64,000 nucleotides of DNA, taken from contig QPIL01000115.1 in assembly GCA_003666325.1 (NCBI GenBank), forward strand, positions 1-64,000, written 5' to 3'. This document shows positions 1 through 58,957 of this stretch, piece after piece; the first letter of the stretch is position 1; every line of letters starts with the position of its first letter. A model generated the notes under the pieces. That model was not told the DNA's origin. It searched no databases and was given only the letters and a program-made list of their open reading frames with translations. The stretch comes from Methylococcales symbiont of Iophon sp. n. MRB-2018. GTDB lineage: Bacteria > Pseudomonadota > Gammaproteobacteria > Methylococcales > Methylomonadaceae. The position numbers and the translations under genes are program-made.

Positions 1-141
1 TAGTCCTAAGTCCTAAGTCTTTAGTCTTTAGTCTTTAGTCTTTAGTCTTTAGTCTTTAGTCTTTAGTCTTTAGTCTTTAGTCTTTAGTCTTTAGTCTTTA
101 GTCTTTAGTCTTTCGTCTTTCGTCTTTCGTCCTTCGTCTTT
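1..141 (+). repeat. Heptanucleotide tandem array (CTTTAGT / CCTAAGT / CTTTCGT variants), about 20 units, starts outside window
   Basis: Direct reading of 7-bp periodicity; ends ...CCTTCGTCTTTTTTAA. Confidence 0.97.
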
Positions 142-157
142 TTTAAAGATTGACTAC

Positions 158-1786: not shown

Positions 1787-1842
1787 GGTATAAGAGCCGC
1801 TGCACTCCCTTCGCCATTCCTGCATGTTCTAAGCAGAGCCGT
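1787..1842. repeat. Fragment of dispersed element A joined to element B
   Basis: ggtataagagccgctgcactcccttcgccattcctgcatgttctaagcaga matches the core of the A copy at 24.7 kb. Confidence 0.75.
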
Positions 1843-1844
1843 AG

Positions 1845-2070
1845 GGTGCGTTCCACGCACCAGATCTAATCAAAAATCAAGGGATCTTTAGTCCTGAGTC
1901 CTGAGTAGTTCTGGTGCGTGGACAGAGATTGTTCCAGACAATCTTACTGCATTTCCACCATCCTTGGCAGTCGCAGAGATTGTTCCAGACAATCTTACTG
2001 CATTTCCATCATCCTTGGCAGTCAGCAGATCCGTAGGGTGCGTTCCACGCACCAGATCTAATCAAAAATC
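1845..2070 (-). repeat. Dispersed element B: two ~51-52-bp hairpin units flanked by GGTGCGTGGAACGCACC palindromes
   Basis: agagattgttccagacaatcttactgcatttccaccatccttggcag repeated at 1924 and 1975; flanking gggtgcgttccacgcacc at both ends. Confidence 0.92.
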
Positions 2071-2075
2071 AAGGG

Positions 2076-2193
2076 GTCTTTAGTCTTTAGTCTTTAGTCT
2101 TTAGTCTTTAGTCTTTAGTCTTTAGTCTTTAGTCTTTAGTCTTGAGTCTTGAGTCTTGAGTCTTGAGTCTTGAGTCTTGAGTCTTGAGTCTTG
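2076..2193 (+). repeat. Heptanucleotide tandem array, CTTTAGT block followed by CTTGAGT block
   Basis: Direct reading; overlaps the 3' end of the neighbouring minus-strand CDS. Confidence 0.97.
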
Positions 2194-4267
2194 ATCCCCT
2201 TGCGAGAATAATTAAAATAGTTATAAGAAAAATAACAAGAAACAAAGGCCAAAAAATAGCCTTATTCCACTGCTCTCTTTTTTCTCTTCTTAATTTATCA
2301 TCAATCCGTGTATATTTTAATCGGTTATTTGCCATTAAATTAGGTTTTAAATTCTTATACCAGCTATGGAAAAGTGAAAAACTCTTAGGGTAAAAGCCAA
2401 ACACCCAAGGTGCATCATGCCTGATAATTTCTTGCATTTTTTGTACAATTTCCAGACGTTTCTCGTTATTATCTATATTACGCATTTGTTCAAATAAGTG
2501 ATCAAACTCGGTATTATGATAATTTGCTGCATTTTCACCCCCCTGTTTAACCTTTCCATTTGCACTATAAAGTAAAAAAAAGAAATTTTCTGGGTCGGGG
2601 TAATCCGCATTCCAGCCCCAAAAGAATAGTTGCTCACTTCCATTACGCATTTTTTCTTGGAAACGATTGTAATCTGTTCCTCTTATAATTAAATTAATAC
2701 CCAATTTTGCAAATTGCTTGCGGTACCAATTCATTCTTGATCTATCATCTATACTGATTGAAGTGGTATCAAAATAAAGCATTAATGCTTTATTTGTCTT
2801 TGGATCTACCCCTTGTGGGTATCCAGCTTCTGTCATTAATTCTTTAGCTTTAGCTATCGCTTTACGCTGATATTTTCCATTAATCCAGTCATAAATGTAG
2901 GGGTTAATCCCTTCTTTTTTTTCTTGATGACCAAAAATACCGAGCGGTAATATGCCTTGGGCTGCTACCCCTCGCCCATTCATAAAAATGGAAATATATT
3001 CTTCATAATCCAGTGCTATTGAAATAGCTTGTCTAAGCTTTCGTGCCCGTTCTGAATCACCGCCAACCAAAGGATCTAACATATTGAATCCCATATAAAA
3101 AATAGAGGTAGTCACCGATGTTTGAAGTTGGATGCCTTTTTGTTTCATTAATGTTGTTAATTGCGCATTCCCTGCTCCACTAAATTGTACTGCTTGGTCA
3201 AAACTATCAGAAGAAATTCCTGAAGCATCATAGTACCCTTGCAAAAATTTATTCCAATAAGGAATCGTCTCTTTCTCTAAGGTATAAATAACTTTGTCGA
3301 TAAAGGGTAATAATTTTCCTGCGTCTTCAAGTAATCCTTGTTCTTTATCTTCTGGCTCTCCATTTATCGGATAAGTATCTTTATGATAATTAGGATTTTT
3401 AGCAAGAATCATGCGTCTATTGGGATTATTTTCTTCCAAGTAATAAGGCCCTGTTCCTATCGGAAACCAGTCTAGTGTTATATTTTTATCTATTAAACCT
3501 TTTTGCGAATAAAAAACATCGGCTTCCCAAGGCATTGCAGCAAAAAACGGCATGGCTAGCCAGTACATAAATTGCGGGTATTTACCTTTAATTCTAATTT
3601 TATATTGGTATCGACTTAATACTTTAACACCTGATATTGATAGGTCTTTGATAGCTAATTTATCGTGATTTGCCATTTTTTTGCTAAATTCATCAAAGCC
3701 AAAAATATAATTCCGCATAATTTCTCTAATGGGTGATTGGATTTTTGGATGGGCTAATCGTTTGATTTGATAGACATAATCAATGGCTTGTAATTCTCTA
3801 GTAGCAATAGATGAAAAATCTTGAATGGTATTAATGTCTGCCAATTTCAAACTATTTAATTGATGATTATTAGGGTCAAAAGCGGGATGGGGTTGATATT
3901 TTATGCCAGCTTTTATCTCAATCAAATAATCAGTATAAGCAACTTCTGAATCTAAATAATCGGCGGTCAGCTTTTCATTATTTTTATTAAAATAACTAAT
4001 CACAGGCATATTGATAGCTGTTAATGGCTCCAACTGATAGGGTCTTTTAAGATAATGATATTGCAAAGGCGGCTCATATATTTGAGCAATAAAAGTATAT
4101 TCATTGGCGCTATAAGCAACCGCTGGGTCTAGATGTTTGGGACGTTCAGAAAAAGAAGAATACAAGGTTGATATTCCCTCTTCACTTTCTGCATACGGAT
4201 TATTTAACTGTGAAAATTCACAACTTGTTAAAATTAACATCAAAATAATGAAATAAATATTCTGCAT
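2129..4267 (-). CDS. Family 5 extracellular solute-binding lipoprotein (peptide ABC transporter) with C-terminal TM and repeat-encoded tail
   Basis: MQNIYFIILMLILTSCEF lipobox; SBP_bac_5-like body; C-term WPLFLVIFLITILIILARGSRLKTQDSRLKTQDSRLKTKD; start moved to internal Met of the 2129..4294 ORF. Confidence 0.85.
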   Translation of the reverse strand: MQNIYFIILMLILTSCEFSQLNNPYAESEEGISTLYSSFSERPKHLDPAVAYSANEYTFIAQIYEPPLQYHYLKRPYQLEPLTAINMPVISYFNKNNEKLTADYLDSEVAYTDYLIEIKAGIKYQPHPAFDPNNHQLNSLKLADINTIQDFSSIATRELQAIDYVYQIKRLAHPKIQSPIREIMRNYIFGFDEFSKKMANHDKLAIKDLSISGVKVLSRYQYKIRIKGKYPQFMYWLAMPFFAAMPWEADVFYSQKGLIDKNITLDWFPIGTGPYYLEENNPNRRMILAKNPNYHKDTYPINGEPEDKEQGLLEDAGKLLPFIDKVIYTLEKETIPYWNKFLQGYYDASGISSDSFDQAVQFSGAGNAQLTTLMKQKGIQLQTSVTTSIFYMGFNMLDPLVGGDSERARKLRQAISIALDYEEYISIFMNGRGVAAQGILPLGIFGHQEKKEGINPYIYDWINGKYQRKAIAKAKELMTEAGYPQGVDPKTNKALMLYFDTTSISIDDRSRMNWYRKQFAKLGINLIIRGTDYNRFQEKMRNGSEQLFFWGWNADYPDPENFFFLLYSANGKVKQGGENAANYHNTEFDHLFEQMRNIDNNEKRLEIVQKMQEIIRHDAPWVFGFYPKSFSLFHSWYKNLKPNLMANNRLKYTRIDDKLRREKREQWNKAIFWPLFLVIFLITILIILARGSRLKTQDSRLKTQDSRLKTKD

Positions 4268-6857: not shown

Positions 6858-7145
6858 AGCAGTCATCCCTTAAAAATACAACAACCATCTGATTTATAAC
6901 AATAAATTAAACAAAAACCATAGAAAAAAACAAGCAGTATTTGGTAAAATAACGGCTATTTCTTGGTCGTTCAAAATCAACCCAAACACAGAGCAACTAA
7001 ACCTCTTTCATTCAGAGTTATTTGTAGAAGAGGGTATAAGATCCGCGTCACTCCCCCAAGTTCTAAGCAGAAATCCAGGTATTTAAAACTAGATTCCCGA
7101 TAACAGACTTCGGGAATGACGTGTAGTAACACAGGTTCCAGTTAC
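6858..7145 (+). repeat. Dispersed element A (copy 1), followed directly by heptamer array
   Basis: aagcagtcatcccttaaaaatacaacaaccatctgatttataac...gattcccgataacagacttcgggaatgacgtgtagtaacacaggttccagtta, matches copies at 24.5, 36.2 and 57.1 kb. Confidence 0.93.
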
Positions 7146-7350
7146 TTTAGTCCTGAATCCTGAATCCTGAGTCTTTAGTCTTTAGTCTTTAGTCTTTAGT
7201 CTTTAGTCTTTAGTCTTTAGTCTTTAGTCTTTAGTCTTTAGTCTTTAGTCTTTAGTCTTTAGTCTTTAGTCTTGAGTCTTTCGTCTTTAGTCTTGAGTCT
7301 TTCGTCTTTCGTCTTTCGTCTTTCGTCTTGAGTCCCGACTCCCGACTCTT
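7146..7350 (+). repeat. Heptanucleotide tandem array, about 29 units, the longest in the window
   Basis: Direct reading: CCTGAAT, CTTTAGT, CTTGAGT, CTTTCGT and CCCGACT variants. Confidence 0.97.
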
Positions 7351-7414
7351 TTGACCTCTAGGTTTAGAGATTTAGTATATAATGCCGTGCTAATTTACTG
7401 TAAGAGTTTTTAAC

Positions 7415-9783: not shown

Positions 9784-9898
9784 GGACTCAGGACTCAGGA
9801 CTCAGGACTCAGGACTAAAGACTCAAGACTCAAGACTCAAGACTCAAGACTCAAGACTCAAGACTCAAGACTAAAGACTAAAGACTAAAGACTAAAGA
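9784..9898 (-). repeat. Heptanucleotide tandem array (GACTCAG / GACTCAA / GACTAAA), begins immediately after the rsfS stop
   Basis: TAA stop at 9781-9783 followed directly by ggactcaggactcagg... Confidence 0.97.
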
Positions 9899-10155
9899 CC
9901 CCTTGATTTTTGATTAGTTCTGGTGCGTGGAACGCACCCTACGGATCTTCTGGGGATAACCCTAGAAGTAGGGTGCGTTTGCCCACCAAGGATGGTGGAA
10001 ATGCAGTAAGATTGTCTGGAACAATCTTTGCTGACTGCCAAGGATGGTGGAAATGCAGTAAGATTGTCTGGAACAATCTTTGCTGACTGCCAAGGATGGT
10101 GGAAATGCAGTAAGATTGTCTGGAACAATCTCTGTCCACGCACCAGAACTACTAA
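9899..10155 (+). repeat. Dispersed element B with three 52-bp hairpin units
   Basis: gccaaggatggtggaaatgcagtaagattgtctggaacaatct starts at 9987, 10039, 10091 (exact 52-bp period); flanks ggtgcgtggaacgcacc / cgcaccagaac. Confidence 0.95.
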
Positions 10156-15776: not shown

Positions 15777-15933
15777 CAGACTTCAACATAACGAAGGAAC
15801 GGATAAAAAAGGCTAGAAGTTTTCCACCTTTCAGCCAAAATAACGTGCAATAGCACTATTACATTTATATTTTGACTAAAACCTGAAAAATTTTATCACT
15901 TTTTTTGTCCGTCCAAGTTATGCTGAGGCCTCA
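15777..15933. mobile_element. MITE-like inverted-repeat element, copy 1 (left end degraded)
   Basis: cataacgaaggaacggataaaaaaggctagaag...cactttttttgtccgtccaagttatgctgaggcctca; aligns to the copy at 30717-30876. Confidence 0.75.
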
Positions 15934-22772: not shown

Positions 22773-22829
22773 GAGACCTCAGCATAACTCTGGACGGATA
22801 AAAAAATGATAGAATTTTTTAGGTCTCAA
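22773..22829. mobile_element. Miniature (internally deleted) copy of the MITE-like element, ~57 bp
   Basis: tgagacctcagcataactctggacggataaaaaaatgatagaattttttaggtctca. Confidence 0.6.
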
Positions 22830-24483: not shown

Positions 24484-24498
24484 AAACCCACCTTATCT

Positions 24499-24817
24499 AG
24501 CCAACCCTTAAAAACACAACAACCATCTGATTTATAACAATAAATTAAACAAAAACTATAGAAAAAAACAAGCAGTATTTGGTAAAATAACGGCTATTTC
24601 TTGGTCGTTTTGCTGATAAAACATACTAACAAAACCAACCCCAAACACAGTGCAACTAAACCTCTTTCATTCAGAGTTATTTGTTGAACATGGCATAAGA
24701 TCCACTCCGCTCCCTCCGTCATTCCTGCATGTTCTAAGCAGAAATCCAGGTGTTTAAAACCAGATTCCCGATAACAGACTTCGGGAATAACGTGTGGTAA
24801 CACAGGTTCCAGTTACT
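24499..24817 (+). repeat. Dispersed element A (copy 2)
   Basis: acccttaaaaacacaacaaccatctgatttataac...cgggaataacgtgtggtaacacaggttccagttac. Confidence 0.95.
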
Positions 24818-24876
24818 TTAGCCCTTAGTTCTTAGTTCTTAGTTCTTAGTTCTGAGTTCTGAGTCCTTCGTCTTTT
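24818..24876 (+). repeat. Heptanucleotide tandem array (CTTAGTT / CTGAGTT / CTTCGTC), about 8 units
   Basis: Direct reading; ends CCTTCGTCTTTTTTAA exactly as in the array at 1-141. Confidence 0.95.
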
Positions 24877-25201
24877 TTAAGTGTTGACTAGACTTTTATT
24901 TTTAACTTACCACAGTTTGTTTCCATTTTACTGCACAAGACACGGCGCAAATATATCCATCTAGCCTTGGTGACAGCATTTCTGCTGGCAACAGTCTTGA
25001 AAAACAAGGTGGAAATAATTTATACATTGTGATTTGTTAATAGCCATAAAACTTAATTATGCTTACAATTAATGAATTTTACTCTACCATTTACTTTGTA
25101 TTTGCTAATGTACCATTTTTTATCTAGTCTTTAACTTGATTCAGCTAATCCATTTGCAAAAAAACGTGACCCACACCCACTATTAAAAGCTAGGAAATAA
25201 A

Positions 25202-28030
25202 ATGAGCAACCTGCTAAAACAGTTTCAAGAATCATCAGCATTTTATGGCGGCAATGCCACTTTCATTGAGGGTTTATATGAGCAGTTTCTTGATGACCCT
25301 GATGCCGTATCAGAAAGCTGGCGAGAAAAATTCATTTCTCTTGGTAATGGAACAAGCCATGAAATCGCACACAGCCCGATAGTTGATCGCTTTGAAAAAT
25401 TAGCAAAAAGCACGCAAGGAAGATTAGCAAAAACACAAGGCTTTACTGAAGAAAGTGTTAAAAAGCAATCCGCTGTCGCCAGACTGATAAATCACTATAG
25501 AATGCGTGGACACCAAATAGCAACAAACAATCCTTTAGGAAACGCAATAAAAACGCGACCTGACCTTGAGTTCTCATATTATGGTTTAGCCGAACCAGAC
25601 ATGGACACTTACTTTGATACTGATTCACTTTATGGTGTTGACAAGCTGCCTTTAAGAAAAATCATTTCCACCTTAAAAGAAATCTATTGCGGTAGCATCG
25701 GCAGTGAATATATGCATATTCCAGATGCTGATACAACGCGCTGGATAAAAAACAAATTAGAAGGGAAAAAATTAGACGCTACAACGCATTGTAAAGAAAA
25801 GAAAACATACTTATTAAAAACTTTAACTGCAGCAGAAGGCATTGAAAAACATTTACATCGTAAATATGTTGGACAAAAACGTTTTTCTTTGGAGGGTAGT
25901 GAATGCCTAATCCCTGTTCTGGATGAATTAATTCAAACTGCTGGTGACAAACATGTCAAAGAAATTGTTATCGGCATGGCACACCGTGGACGCTTAAATG
26001 TATTAATCAATATATTAGGTAAAAGTCCTGCTCAATTATTTGGGGAGTTTGAAGGTACTCATACCTCATCACCTAGTGCATTAACCGGTGATGTCAAATA
26101 TCACATGGGTTTTTCCTCAAATATAGCCACCCTAGAAGGCTCAGTACACTTAACATTAGGTTTCAATCCCTCTCATCTTGAAATTATCAATCCTGTGATT
26201 GAAGGCTCTGTGAAAGCCAGACAAGATAGAAGGGGCAAGGGCAGTGTGAATGCTATTATCCCCATTTTAATTCATGGTGATGCTGCTTTTGCTGGACAAG
26301 GCATTGTGATGGAAACTTTAAATATGTCAGAAACACATGCGTTTTCTACCGGTGGAACCATTCATATTGTCATTAACAATCAAATTGGTTTTACCACTAG
26401 CAATCCATTTGATGCCAGATCCACACTTTATTGCACAGATGTTGCTACCATGATTCATGCACCTGTTTTTCATGTGAATGGTGACGATCCTGAGGCAGTT
26501 ATATTCGTTACCCAATTGGCACTTGAATATCGAATGAAATTTAACAAGGATGTGGTGATTGATCTGATCTGTTATCGCCGACTGGGACATAACGAAGCGG
26601 ATGAGCCTGCCACTACCCAACCAATGATGTACAAAACCATCCGCAAATTGCCTTCTGTTCGTGAAATATATGCGAAACAATTAATAGATGAAAAAATATT
26701 GACAGAACAAACCGCTCAACAAATGGTTGCAGATTACCAGCAATTATTAGATGAGGGGAAACCCGTATCCCGTCCCGCTTTAGATGACTCCGCCTATCAC
26801 TACTCTGGACAATGGCAACGATATGAAGGTCAGGATTGGACAGTGCCTTGCAACACTCAAGTCTCACTTGATGAAATTCGTTTGTGTAGTGACAAAATAC
26901 ACCAATTACCAGCAGAGTTTGAATTACACCCTCGGGTTGCAAAAGTGATGGAAAACAGATTAAAAATGTCAGCGGGGGCATTACCTATAGACTGGGGTTT
27001 TGCAGAAAACTTGGCTTATGCCACGCTCATCACTCAATGCAAAGGCATCCGTTTAATAGGTCAGGACGTAGGACGTGGTACATTTTCCCATCGCCACATT
27101 GCTTTGCATAATCAACTCAATGGCGAGACTTATTTTCCCATCCAACACATTGCTAAAAACCAAGGTCGCGCACAAATTTTTGACTCTTTATTATCAGAAG
27201 CGGGTGTACTTGGCTTTGAATTTGGCTACAGTTCAACAGAACCAGAAAAACTGGTCATTTGGGAAGCTCAATTTGGTGATTTTGCCAATGGCGCACAAGT
27301 TGTGATCGACCAATTTATTAGTTCTGCTGAAACCAAATGGGGGCGTTTATGCGGTCTGGTTATGTTATTACCTCACGGTTTTGAAGGTCAAGGTCCTGAA
27401 CACTCCTCAGCCAGACTTGAACGCTATCTACAGTTGTGTGCAGACCATAATATTCAAGTCTGTTGCCCCACAACACCTGCACAAATATTTCATCTTTTAA
27501 GACGCCAACAACTACGCCCTTATCGTAAGCCGCTTATTGTCATGAGTCCGAAAAGTTTACTCAGACACAAACAAGCTGTGTCAACGCTGGAAGATTTGAC
27601 AGACGGTGAATTTCAATGTGTCATTCCTGAGCAAAGCGAAATAGATCCTCAACAAGTAACCCGTATTGTCATGTGTTCTGGTAAAGTCTACTATGATCTA
27701 ATAGAAACTCGTAACAATGATAATCTCAAACATATTGCTATTATTCGTATTGAACAACTATATCCGTTCCCTAATGATTTATTTACCGCTGAAATTGACA
27801 AATACCCTCATATAAATCAACTGATCTGGTGCCAAGAAGAGCCAAAAAACCAAGGTGCATGGTATCAGTCAAAACATCATTTCTACGGCAATATAAATAA
27901 AAACATCACTATCTATTACGCAGGAAGAGCAGCTTCAGCAGCACCTGCTGTAGGTAGTCTTAGTGCCCATATTAAACAACAAAGAGCCGTCATTCAGGCA
28001 GCACTTTATGATACCAACGAAGGAAGTTAA
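25202..28030 (+). CDS. sucA: 2-oxoglutarate dehydrogenase E1
   Basis: [61 protein letters not shown]. Confidence 0.97.
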
Positions 28031-30716: not shown

Positions 30717-30876
30717 GAGACCTCAGCATAACTTTGGAACGGATAAAAAAGGCTAAAAGTTTTTCATCTTTCAGCCAAAATAACGCACAATAGCGCATTA
30801 TTACACTTGTATTTTGACTAAAACCTAAAAAACCCTATCACTTTTTTTATCTGACCCAAAGTTATACTGAGGTCTC
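30717..30876. mobile_element. MITE-like element, ~160 bp with ~34-bp imperfect terminal inverted repeats
   Basis: Left GAGACCTCAGCATAACTTTGGAACGGATAAAAAA; right end reverse complement GAGACCTCAGTATAACTTTGGGTCAGATAAAAAA (30 of 34 identical). Confidence 0.85.
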
Positions 30877-30927
30877 AAAAAGAAAAGCAAACGATAAGGG
30901 TTTAGTTTACATTAATGTAGTGGTTTT

Positions 30928-36239: not shown

Positions 36240-36560
36240 TAAGCAGTCATCCCTTAAAAACACAACAACCATTTGATTTATAACAGTAAATTAAACAAAA
36301 ACCATAAACAAAACAAGCAGTATTTGGTAAAATAACAGCTATTCCTTGGTCGTTTTACTGATAAAACATACTAACAAAATCAACCCCAACCCCAACCCCA
36401 GAGCAACCAAACCTCTTTCATTCAGAGTTATTTGTTGAAAATGGTATAAGATCCGCGTCACTCCCACATGTTACAAGCAGAAATTCAGGTGTTTAAAACT
36501 AGATTTCCGACAACAGACTTCGGGAATGACATGTAGTAACAGAAGTTCCAGTTACCTTAG
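36240..36560 (+). repeat. Dispersed element A (copy 3)
   Basis: aagcagtcatcccttaaaaacacaacaaccatttg...cgggaatgacatgtagtaacagaagttccagttac. Confidence 0.94.
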
Positions 36561-36592
36561 CCCTGAGTCTTGAGTCTTGAGTCTTGAGTCTT
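36561..36592 (+). repeat. Heptanucleotide tandem array (CTTGAGT), about 4 units
   Basis: ccctgagtcttgagtcttgagtcttgagtctttttaa. Confidence 0.93.
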
Positions 36593-36832: not shown

Positions 36833-37183
36833 ATGAAAATTGTACACATTTTAATCCCCATCGTTGCTTTTGTGCTATTAGCTTGTGAAGATCCATCAAC
36901 AGAAAGCATTGTTGAGTCCGCTACTCCAAAGACTGAAACTGCTATTCCAGCGGCAACAATGGCTGAAGAAGTTAAGGTTGAAGCGACAACAAGTGAAGCT
37001 GTTGAAAAAGTAGTGGATATGGATATGGATATGAAGATGGATAAAAATATGAATATGGATATGAAGATGGATAAAGATATGAATATGGAAATGAATATGG
37101 ATAAAGCAGAAACTGTAGAAGCCACTGAAGATATGATGATGACTGAAGAGGTTGATGCTAGCAAAATGGAAGCTACTAAATAG
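36833..37183 (+). CDS. Small lipoprotein with Met/Asp/Lys repeat
   Basis: Lipobox VLLAC; DMDMDMKMDKNMNMDMKMDKDMNMEMNMDK; 30-bp DNA period. Confidence 0.75.
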   Translation: MKIVHILIPIVAFVLLACEDPSTESIVESATPKTETAIPAATMAEEVKVEATTSEAVEKVVDMDMDMKMDKNMNMDMKMDKDMNMEMNMDKAETVEATEDMMMTEEVDASKMEATK

Positions 37184-37362
37184 TCAACCCTTAAAAACAT
37201 CATAACAGTTTGATTTATAACAATAAACAAAACAAAATACATAGATAAATCAAACAGTATTTGGTAAAATAACACTTATTTATTGGTTGTTTTTCTGATA
37301 AAAATAGACTAACAAAATAAACCCCAAACACAGGGCAACTAAACCTCTTTCATTCTGAGGTC
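37184..37362 (+). repeat. Truncated element A (copy 4), ends at a CTGAGGTCTC motif
   Basis: acccttaaaaacatcataacagtttgatttataac...gcaactaaacctctttcattctgaggtctcg. Confidence 0.88.
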
Positions 37363-37471
37363 TCGTATTAATGGTTGCCCGTGCCTAGAATTTGAAAAAG
37401 TGGCTAGTAATGGCGGATATTTTTTATTTAGGTTTTTAGGGTTAACTAAGTAAGAACGTCTGTTTGAATAC

Positions 37472-44882: not shown

Positions 44883-45082
44883 CCGTAGGGTACGTTTGCC
44901 CGCCAAGGATGGTGGAAATGCAGTAAGATTGTCTGGAACAATCTCTGCTGACCGCCAAGGATGGTGGAAATGCAGTAAGATTGTCTGGAACAATCTCTGC
45001 TGACCGCCAAGGATGGTGGAAATGCAGTAAGATTGTCTGGAACAATCTCTGCCCACGCACCAGAACCAATCAAAAATCAAGG
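44883..45082 (+). repeat. Dispersed element B with three 52-bp hairpin units
   Basis: caaggatggtggaaatgcagtaagattgtctggaacaatctctgctgaccgc at 44904, 44956, 45008. Confidence 0.95.
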
Positions 45083-45127
45083 AGTCTTTAGTCTTTAGTC
45101 CTGAGTCCTGAGTCCTGAGTCCTTAGC
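45083..45127 (+). repeat. Heptanucleotide tandem array, about 6 units
   Basis: agtctttagtctttagtcctgagtcctgagtcctgagtcc. Confidence 0.95.
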
Positions 45128-57081: not shown

Positions 57082-57386
57082 AGCCAACCCTTAAAAACGC
57101 AACAACCATCTGATTTATAACAATAAATTAAACAAAAACCATAGGAAAAACAAGCAGTATTTGGTAAAATAACACCTATTTATTGGTCGTTTTTCTGATA
57201 AAAACATACTAACAAAATCAACCCCAAACAGAACAACTAAACCTCTTTCATTCAGAGTTATTTGTAGAACATAGCATAAGAACCGCGTCACTCCTGCCTG
57301 TTCCAAGCAGGAATCCAGGTATTTAAAACTATATTCCCGATAACAGACTTCGGGAATGACGTATGGTAACAGAGGTTCCAGTTACT
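57082..57386 (+). repeat. Dispersed element A (copy 6)
   Basis: agccaacccttaaaaacgcaacaaccatctgatttataac...cgggaatgacgtatggtaacagaggttccagttac. Confidence 0.95.
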
Positions 57387-57486
57387 TGAGTCCTGAGTCT
57401 TGAGTCTTGAGTCTTGAGTCTTGAGTCTTGAGTCTTGAGTCTTGAGTCTTGAGTCTTGAGTCTTTCGTCTTTAGTCTTTAGTCTTC
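57387..57486 (+). repeat. Heptanucleotide tandem array (CTTGAGT-rich), about 14 units
   Basis: Direct reading. Confidence 0.97.
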
Positions 57487-57499
57487 TTTAAGCCGTGAA

Positions 57500-58957
57500 C
57501 TACCTACCAAACAATCTAATTAAATGAGTAAGACGTTTAACCTGCTCTTCAGTTAATTGCTCCCATTCAAAACGCCAAGACCAATTACCTTCAGAGGTGC
57601 CAGGCACATTCATCCTATCTTCCGAGCCCAGCTCTAAAATATCCTGCATAGGAATAATAGCCAAATTAGCCACTGATGCCAAAGCCACACCTATCAGGGT
57701 AAAAGGCATCGCTGTTTGCGAAAATCCTAAATATTCATATATTCGATGTTTCTCATGATCATGCAAGGAGTTAAACCAGCCCAGTGTAGTGTCATTATCA
57801 TGCGTCCCTGAATAAACCACACTATTTTGCACATGATTATGTGGTAAATACACATTATCCGCATTACCATCAAAAGCAAAATGTAGAATTTTCATTCCTG
57901 GCAAATTAAATTCATTCCTTAAATCATCCACTTCTTGAGTAATAACTCCAAGATCTTCCGCCACTAAGGCAATTGAACTACATTCTTTTTTTATCACCTG
58001 AAGAAGCTCCTTACCTGGAGCAGCCACCCACTGTCCATTAATAGCGGTATATTCACTGGCAGGAATCTCCCATGCTGACTCCAGTCCACGAAAATGATCA
58101 ATACGCACAATATCAAATAACTCATCCTGCGTTTTGATTCTATCTATCCACCATCTAAATTGAGTTTTCTGCAAATACTTCCAATCATAATGAGGATTAC
58201 CCCATCGCTGTCCTGTTGCAGAAAAATAATCAGGCGGCACACCAGCAACTACAGACATATCCCCTGATTTATCTAACTTGAAAACCTTCCTATTTGCCCA
58301 GACATCAGAACTGTCATAGGATACAAAAAATGGAATATCACCAAACAACAGTACATTTTTACCCCTCGCATAAGTCCTTAATTCAATCCATTGAGAAAAA
58401 AACACAAACTGCTCATATTTAACATTCTCAATTGATGAATTTAAACGCGATACTGCTTTCTTAATGGCTGCTGGCTTTTTGTTTTTTAAAGGTTCAGGCC
58501 ATTGGTTCCAGCAACTATTTTCAAGCTCTTGTCTCAGCACAAAAAATAAAGAAAAATCATCCAGCCACTCCGCTTTTTCTTTGCAGAACTGTTTAAAGTT
58601 TTTTTTCTCTTGAGAACTTGCGAATTTTTGGAAATCTATAAAGGATTGACTGAGTAAGTCATTTTTACTTAAAACGTCATGCCATTGATCTTGCTCATTG
58701 CTACCCAGCCATCCTTTATCCAGTAACCATTGAATATTGATAAAAGCAGGATTCCCAGCGTGTGCAGAAAGACATTGATAAGGCGACCCATCACTATGTG
58801 GCATTCCCAAGGGTAAGGTTTGCCAAACAGTCACCCCAGAATTATGAAGAAAATCAACAAAGTTATAGGCTTGCTGCCCAAAATCGCCATCGCCTCCTGG
58901 CAAGGAGGATATATGCAGTAATACACCAGCTCTACGGCTGGCTATAGGTGAACTCAT
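57500..58957 (-). CDS. malQ: 4-alpha-glucanotransferase
   Basis: RRAGVLLHISSLPGGDGDFG, IVRIDHFRGLESAWEIP, VVYSGTHDNDTTLGW. Confidence 0.96.
   Translation of the reverse strand: MSSPIASRRAGVLLHISSLPGGDGDFGQQAYNFVDFLHNSGVTVWQTLPLGMPHSDGSPYQCLSAHAGNPAFINIQWLLDKGWLGSNEQDQWHDVLSKNDLLSQSFIDFQKFASSQEKKNFKQFCKEKAEWLDDFSLFFVLRQELENSCWNQWPEPLKNKKPAAIKKAVSRLNSSIENVKYEQFVFFSQWIELRTYARGKNVLLFGDIPFFVSYDSSDVWANRKVFKLDKSGDMSVVAGVPPDYFSATGQRWGNPHYDWKYLQKTQFRWWIDRIKTQDELFDIVRIDHFRGLESAWEIPASEYTAINGQWVAAPGKELLQVIKKECSSIALVAEDLGVITQEVDDLRNEFNLPGMKILHFAFDGNADNVYLPHNHVQNSVVYSGTHDNDTTLGWFNSLHDHEKHRIYEYLGFSQTAMPFTLIGVALASVANLAIIPMQDILELGSEDRMNVPGTSEGNWSWRFEWEQLTEEQVKRLTHLIRLFGR

What the first reader, a model, noticed from the sequence alone, without database searches (positions are those of the whole stretch)
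24499..24890. Dispersed ~310-bp element A: fixed body plus variable heptamer tail plus fixed end
Four near-complete copies (6858, 24499, 36240, 57082) and two truncated ones (37184, 44270) share CCCTTAAAAACACAACAACC...TTCCCGATAACAGACTTCGGGAA...GGTTCCAGTTAC followed directly by a heptamer array. In two cases the array ends in the same boundary CCTTCGTCTTTTTTAA-G-TTGACTA (array at 1-141 and array at 24818-24876). Ends TTAAAAA...TTTTTAA are complementary. No transposase is present, so it looks non-autonomous, with an expandable internal or terminal microsatellite, an unusual bacterial architecture.
Basis: partly seen in the sequence, partly recalled or inferred. Interest (0 to 1): 0.62.

Follow-up and report, generated by a model that had tools for sequence, protein, structure and literature searches.

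The report
IS5-derived MITE carrying expandable heptamer array
A small gene-less jumping element, cut down from an ordinary IS5-type transposon, has spread through the genome of a methane-oxidising bacterium related to sponge symbionts, carrying a 7-base repeat that has expanded at dozens of sites but is rare in a 95%-identical sister genome.

Summary
The 24499 element is one of about 40 or more near-full copies in its genome; the left part has 88 and the right part 72 pattern hits. Its outer ends are 15-bp inverted repeats (GTCAACCCTTAAAAA). They enclose three modules: the left end of an IS5-family insertion sequence, a two-hairpin CGTC-REP-like module, and a heptamer array just inside the right end. 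The near-complete parent insertion sequence, with a DDE transposase, is present in a syntenic sister genome (G001, Methylococcales symbiont of the sponge Hymedesmia); in G000 only transposase fragments were found. Exact TANNTA duplications flank 9 of 21 paired copies. Seventeen of 18 syntenic sites carry nothing A-like in G001, and the reported copy has a clean empty site lacking body and array together. It is therefore a MITE. Array expansion is lineage-specific: 1281 heptamer 27-mer hits against 20 in G001 and none in 57 of 60 relatives, in a genome with an intact-looking mutS and no detected reverse transcriptase. MITEs with internal tandem repeats are known (BrickBuilt in Porphyromonas, IS5-like ends), so this is a new variant of a known kind. 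Regulatory function and current mobility are untested.

The parts
24494..24499 (+). left target-site sequence TATCTA (G001 empty site: TACCTA)
   Evidence: only TA remains on the right side (24889-24890)
24500..24514 (+). left terminal inverted repeat GCCAACCCTTAAAAA
   Evidence: pairs with 24874-24888; family consensus GTCAACCCTTAAAAA
24500..24682 (+). L module: left end of the parent IS5-family element (terminal repeat, promoter region, start of the transposase reading frame with ATG changed to ATA)
   Evidence: 85-91% identical to the left ends of G001 insertion sequences L040, L044, L046; ATA in 43 of 51 scored G000 copies, ATG in 5 of 5 in G001
24717..24792 (+). R module: two 8-bp-stem hairpins in opposite orientation bounded by CGTC and (A/G)ACG, CGTC-REP-like
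   Evidence: sequence; DNA fold z = -2.0; 72 pattern hits in the genome; partial matches (query about 214-310) in other genomes of the genus
24806..24817 (+). conserved junction GGTTCCAGTTAC before the array
24818..24872 (+). heptamer array, units AGTTCTT, AGTTCTG, AGTCCTT, CGTCTTT
24874..24888 (+). right terminal inverted repeat TTTTTAAGTGTTGAC
6861..7352 (+). copy of A with array 7147-about 7350; right terminal repeat not recognisable
36245..36592 (+). copy of A with short array 36559-36592; right terminal repeat not recognisable; nothing A-like at this site in G001
37183..37446 (+). internally deleted copy of the parent insertion sequence: left end joined to the transposase C-terminal remnant and right end; TSD TAAATA/TAAGTA (5 of 6)
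   Evidence: remnant compared by eye with L046
44274..44337 (+). left-end fragment (query 5-68)
57083..57500 (+). copy of A with array 57387-57483 and degenerate right end TTTAAGCCGTGAAC
1..157 (+). right portion of an array-bearing copy cut by the contig start: array 1-134, right terminal repeat about 139-157

Best explanation
[quoted passage not shown] It arose by internal deletion of an IS5-family insertion sequence, captured an older palindromic CGTC-REP-like segment (R) and a short heptamer run next to the right end, and was mobilised in trans by the parent's DDE transposase. Shown: terminal repeats and left-end sequence shared with the parent, 6-bp TANNTA target duplications, G001 sites that lack the element, and a G001 copy of the whole composite with only four heptamers. 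Inferred: mobilisation by that transposase; capture of R; growth of the heptamer run at each locus after insertion by replication slippage or unequal recombination (neighbouring units are more alike than chance); spread of arrays beyond A by nesting with element B and by deletions that removed the right terminal repeat. No regulatory role was found or is needed.
For: Body copies >=41, L hits 88, R hits 72. Parent insertion sequences in G001 with the same left end, ends GTCAACCCTTAAAAA/TTTTTAAGGGTTGAC, DUF772 and DDE_Tnp_1 domains, best NCBIfam model IS5 NF033578. Exact TANNTA duplications in 9 of 21 paired ends against 1.5 expected by shuffling, none of 100,000 shuffles reaching 9. Clean empty site for the reported copy, lacking body and array together; 17 of 18 syntenic sites without any A-like sequence in G001. 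Composite with TSD TACATA and four heptamers in G001 C4, and the same layout with about seven in G000 C47. Heptamer 27-mer hits 1281 in G000, 20 in G001; 655 of 922 neighbouring units identical against 415 expected within arrays. Tandem arrays of other periods are raised far less in G000 (69 against 34, versus 89 against 8 for heptamer multiples).
Against: No intact transposase was found in G000, and the two G001 copies whose frames were listed carry in-frame stops, so current mobility is doubtful. Many array-bearing copies lack a recognisable right terminal repeat. Two empty sites, including the reported one, show only a 2-bp TA duplication instead of 6 bp. Slippage alone does not explain why this motif family expands so much more in G000 than in G001; mutS is intact-looking in both. 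The direction of change (insertion in G000, not loss in G001) was not polarised with an outgroup at each site.
Confidence: 0.86

Rival explanations
1. The heptamer array is the real mobile or amplifying entity: a dedicated process, for example telomerase-like reverse transcription or array-directed recombination, adds heptamers at element ends and breaks, and element A is only a frequent neighbour.
For: Arrays follow A, B and other sequences, usually in a fixed orientation with a variable right junction; the expansion is mostly confined to one motif family. The right terminal repeat is often lost at the array.
Against: No RVT_1 reverse transcriptase found in G000. Most arrays start at an A or B tail. 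Runs of identical units fit slippage or recombination. At the reported site body and array are absent together in G001.
Confidence: 0.07
2. The element is retained as a regulatory or transcript-end module (REP-like terminator or binding array), and its transposon ancestry is incidental.
For: The R module folds into hairpins somewhat better than shuffles; copies are nearly all intergenic (1 of 55 overlaps an ORF). Heptamer repeats have been proposed to act in translation in marine Beggiatoaceae (PMC4679880).
Against: No orientation rule relative to genes: 17, 15, 12 and 10 in the four contexts. Distances to start or stop codons are spread widely, no site is shared with the sister genome apart from one with R alone, and no Rfam family matches.
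Confidence: 0.1
3. SINE- or LINE-like retroposition: fixed body, variable 3' repeat tail, 5' truncations.
For: Several copies keep the 3' end and array but lack 5' sequence.
Against: 3'-truncated copies are also common; terminal inverted repeats, TANNTA duplications and a DNA-transposon parent exist; no reverse transcriptase found in G000.
Confidence: 0.01
4. Assembly artefact: arrays and copies are collapsed or chimeric repeats in a draft assembly.
For: Draft of 123 contigs; some contigs begin inside arrays (window start, C12, C18).
Against: Dozens of copies sit between distinct unique genes that are syntenic with G001, with target duplications and individual sequence differences (mean pairwise identity 92%). 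Array lengths longer than a read remain uncertain.
Confidence: 0.02

Closest known systems
BrickBuilt MITE of Porphyromonas gingivalis (PMC4596501)
   Same: Intergenic non-autonomous element of about 19 copies with distinct leader and tail, internal direct tandem repeats of variable number, terminal repeats like IS5-family ISPg1, a TSD seen by filled and empty sites, and many copies with degraded ends.
   Different: 23-nt unit and 4-bp TSD, with no transposase remnant recognised in the element; here a 7-nt unit, TANNTA TSD, an identified parental insertion sequence in a sister genome, an added REP-like module, and far higher array counts.
IS5 family insertion sequences (NCBIfam NF033578, Pfam DUF772 + DDE_Tnp_1)
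   Same: Terminal repeats and the left 184 bp are shared with the parent copies.
   Different: Element A has no transposase; its start codon is changed to ATA in most copies.
CGTC-tagged REP palindromes / dRS3 (PMC3733652)
   Same: The R module has CGTC next to 8-bp stems beginning with AT, a CCA tail after the first stem, and two units in opposite orientation.
   Different: Loops are 9 nt instead of the usual 4-5 nt, and R is embedded in a MITE.
TAACTGA heptamer repeats of marine Beggiatoaceae (PMC4679880); GGGAATC and GGGGATT repeats of Xanthomonas and Nostoc (PMC4692102)
   Same: Abundant intergenic heptamer arrays in single lineages.
   Different: Different motif; here a MITE vehicle and parental insertion sequence are demonstrated.

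Membership tests
Bacterial MITE | Terminal inverted repeats at both ends | tested here: met
   GTCAACCCTTAAAAA / TTTTTAAGGGTTGAC, including the reported copy; the right one is lost in many other copies
Bacterial MITE | Target-site duplication | tested here: met
   Exact TANNTA in 9 of 21 pairs against 1.5 expected; the reported copy shows only TA
Bacterial MITE | No transposase gene in the element; many dispersed, mostly intergenic copies | tested here: met
Bacterial MITE | Related autonomous element with the same ends | tested here: met
   G001 L040, L044, L046, L048; the copies checked carry in-frame stops
Bacterial MITE | Empty sites in relatives | tested here: met
   reported site and 16 other syntenic sites without A-like sequence in G001
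Bacterial MITE | Transposition observed in cells | not testable with these tools
   needs an experiment
IS5 family (parent) | DDE transposase matching IS5 models | tested here: met
   NF033578 E = 8e-82 (275.5 bits, cut-off 275) for the C-terminal part; DUF772 for the N-terminal part
IS5 family (parent) | Intact reading frame | tested here: not met
   The frame is broken between the two open parts in L044 and L046
CGTC-REP (R module) | CGTC tag, 8-9 bp stem starting AT, CCA tail | tested here: met
   sequence of window 24717-24792 compared with PMC3733652
CGTC-REP (R module) | Loop of 4-5 nt | tested here: not met
   loops are 9 nt
RAYT-mobilised REP | REP repeats flanking a Y1 transposase gene | tested here: not met
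   four Y1_Tnp hits in G000 but no R sequence around them

The most novel reading that the evidence does not exclude
A heptamer-specific amplification process acts in this lineage: arrays are generated or extended at element ends and double-strand-break junctions by a dedicated mechanism, so the array, and not the MITE, is the expanding genetic entity.
Probability: 0.07. Interest if true: 0.8.

Novelty: new variant of a known kind. Interest (0 to 1): 0.42.

Why it matters
Two syntenic genomes about 95% identical differ by a factor of about 60 in heptamer-array hits, with the vehicle, its parent transposon and many empty sites visible. That makes a natural experiment on how a MITE can seed a genome with microsatellites, and on what decides whether a bacterial heptamer run stays short or expands. 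It also offers a concrete origin for heptamer arrays reported elsewhere without a known source.

Tried and rejected
Rfam at gathering thresholds: no match in the window. RAYT mobilisation of R: Y1_Tnp genes exist but carry no R repeats around them. Telomerase or reverse-transcriptase origin of arrays: no RVT_1 hit in G000. Loss of mutS as the cause of expansion: mutS has an 858-codon open frame in G000 and G001; mutL was not tested. General slippage: other tandem repeats are not increased comparably, 69 against 34 arrays, versus 89 against 8 for heptamer-multiple periods. A first TSD test removed copies with equal flanks as duplicates and gave a weak P of 0.03; it was replaced with all paired copies, a list compiled by hand. 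YTAR (CTAG) was considered as TSD because it fits the reported site; TANNTA fits the family better. Possible birth of L+R at 57082, where G001 has a solitary R in the same intergenic region: flanks differ, so probably an older, independent R element.

Full report
What is there. The reported element is real and belongs to a large family. In the window, blastn with the 24499 copy finds full copies at 6861, 36245 and 57082 and partial ones at 37182 and 44274. Thirty-six full copies in a 765-kb sample have a mean pairwise identity of 92%.

Ends and insertion. Pairing left and right ends over the sampled contigs gives 15-bp terminal inverted repeats GTCAACCCTTAAAAA / TTTTTAAGGGTTGAC. The reported copy is exactly 24500-24888. 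Flanking 6-bp sequences of form TANNTA are identical in 9 of 21 pairs, 1.5 expected after shuffling, none of 100,000 shuffles as good (the pair list was compiled by hand). The closest genome, G001, is about 95-96% identical and syntenic over most of the window stretch compared. At the reported site G000 reads CCTTATCTA[element]TAGACTTT and G001 CCTTACCTAGACTTT: body and array are both missing, with a 2-bp TA overlap and not the 6-bp duplication. One other site (C70:46104) shows the same TA-only junction. Of 18 copies with both flanks placed in the sampled G001 stretches, 17 have nothing A-like there; the exception, 57082, has an R segment only, in a different surrounding. Insertion in G000 is the natural reading, but loss in G001 was not excluded site by site.

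Parent. In G001, L040, L044, L046 and L048 start with the same about 184 bp and continue into a DUF772 + DDE_Tnp_1 transposase whose best NCBIfam model is IS5 NF033578; the unit in L046 is about 1562 bp with the same terminal repeats and TSD TAACTA. Element A thus contains the left end of this insertion sequence, including the start of the transposase frame, with ATG changed to ATA in 43 of 51 scored G000 copies. The two G001 copies whose frames were listed are broken between the two parts of the gene; G000 has only fragments. Window 37183-37446 is a separate deletion derivative that still holds part of the transposase C-terminus and the right end.

R module. Window 24717-24792 has two 8-bp stems with 9-nt loops in opposite orientation (the first stem is mismatched in this copy), flanked by CGTC and AACG. 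It resembles CGTC-tagged REP dimers (PMC3733652) except for the loop length. Partial matches (about query 214-310) occur in other genomes of the genus that lack the rest of A, so R is probably older and was captured. Y1 transposase genes are present in G000 but are not flanked by R.

Arrays. Units follow [A/C]GT[C/T][C/T]T[N]. The 765-kb sample has 97 arrays of at least three units; 37 follow an A tail and 31 a B tail, and 22 end in a recognisable right terminal repeat, while many others run into polyT or unique DNA. Adjacent units are identical in 655 of 922 cases against 415 expected within arrays. Heptamer 27-mer hits number 1281 in G000 (38 in the reversed control), 20 in G001, 15 in G005, 25 in G015 (one array of a different motif) and none in the other 57 genomes. 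Tandem Repeats Finder finds 89 heptamer-multiple arrays in the G000 sample and 8 in G001, other periods 69 and 34. In G001 C4 the composite already carries four heptamers before the right end, with TSD TACATA. The simplest account is a short run present in the dispersing composite, extended later at individual loci. mutS is intact-looking in both genomes and no reverse transcriptase was found in G000, so neither offers an explanation for the lineage difference.

Context. In the sample 1 of 55 L-bearing copies overlaps a predicted ORF, and copies lie in all four orientations relative to flanking genes (17, 15, 12, 10), so no regulatory position rule appears. The 24499 copy lies 16 bp from the start of a DUF2914 gene and about 300 bp before a 2-oxoglutarate dehydrogenase E1 gene that starts at 25202.

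Organism. A scan of named genomes returned one record, QPIN01000051.1, Methylococcales symbiont of Hymedesmia sp. n. MRB-2018 isolate N1, contig length 54391, the length of G001:C4. The window genome is therefore inferred to be a close relative among methane-oxidising sponge symbionts; its 2.09 Mb and the window's 38.0% GC agree with the 2.0-2.2 Mb and 37.7% published for the Campeche sponge symbionts (PMC6474228). Its own name was not shown.

Comparison with the known. BrickBuilt of P. gingivalis is a MITE with an internal tandem repeat and IS5-like ends (PMC4596501), so the plan is known. New here are the 7-nt unit, the composite with a REP-like module, the visible parent, and the scale and lineage specificity of the expansion.

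Noticed in passing
window 1832-2196, 9785-10140, 44885-45123: Element B (GATCCGTAGGGTGCGTT...CACGCACCAGAACTAATCAAAAATCAAGG), often with 2-4 internal 52-bp repeats, also precedes heptamer arrays and is sometimes nested between A's array and right end.
   Followed up: partly
window 15777-15914, 22773-22820, 30717-30880: Another repeat of about 160 bp (GAGACCTCAGCATAACT...), with more than 25 G001 matches; presence/absence differences between G000 and G001, for example at C105:60484, look like clean insertions.
   Followed up: no
L044, L046 (G001 parent insertion sequences): The transposase frame is interrupted in the same region in these copies, raising the question of how they amplified.
   Followed up: no
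window 37014-37106 (ORF 36833-37183): Coding 30-bp tandem repeat that the aligned G001 gene lacks; the ORF's stop codon in G000 is supplied by the inserted element's TAG.
   Followed up: partly
L031 downstream of the composite (G001 C4): A CRISPR-like array with repeat TTTCTAAGCTGCCTGTGCGGCAGTGAAC lies next to the G001 composite; the same 28-nt repeat occurs in G000.
   Followed up: no
G015:C2:955592-955786: A distant family member has one long perfect GGTCTTT heptamer array.
   Followed up: no
L113 (G000 C59), 1572-1638: A 67-bp mini-element: two terminal repeats around about three heptamers, the smallest form seen.
   Followed up: no
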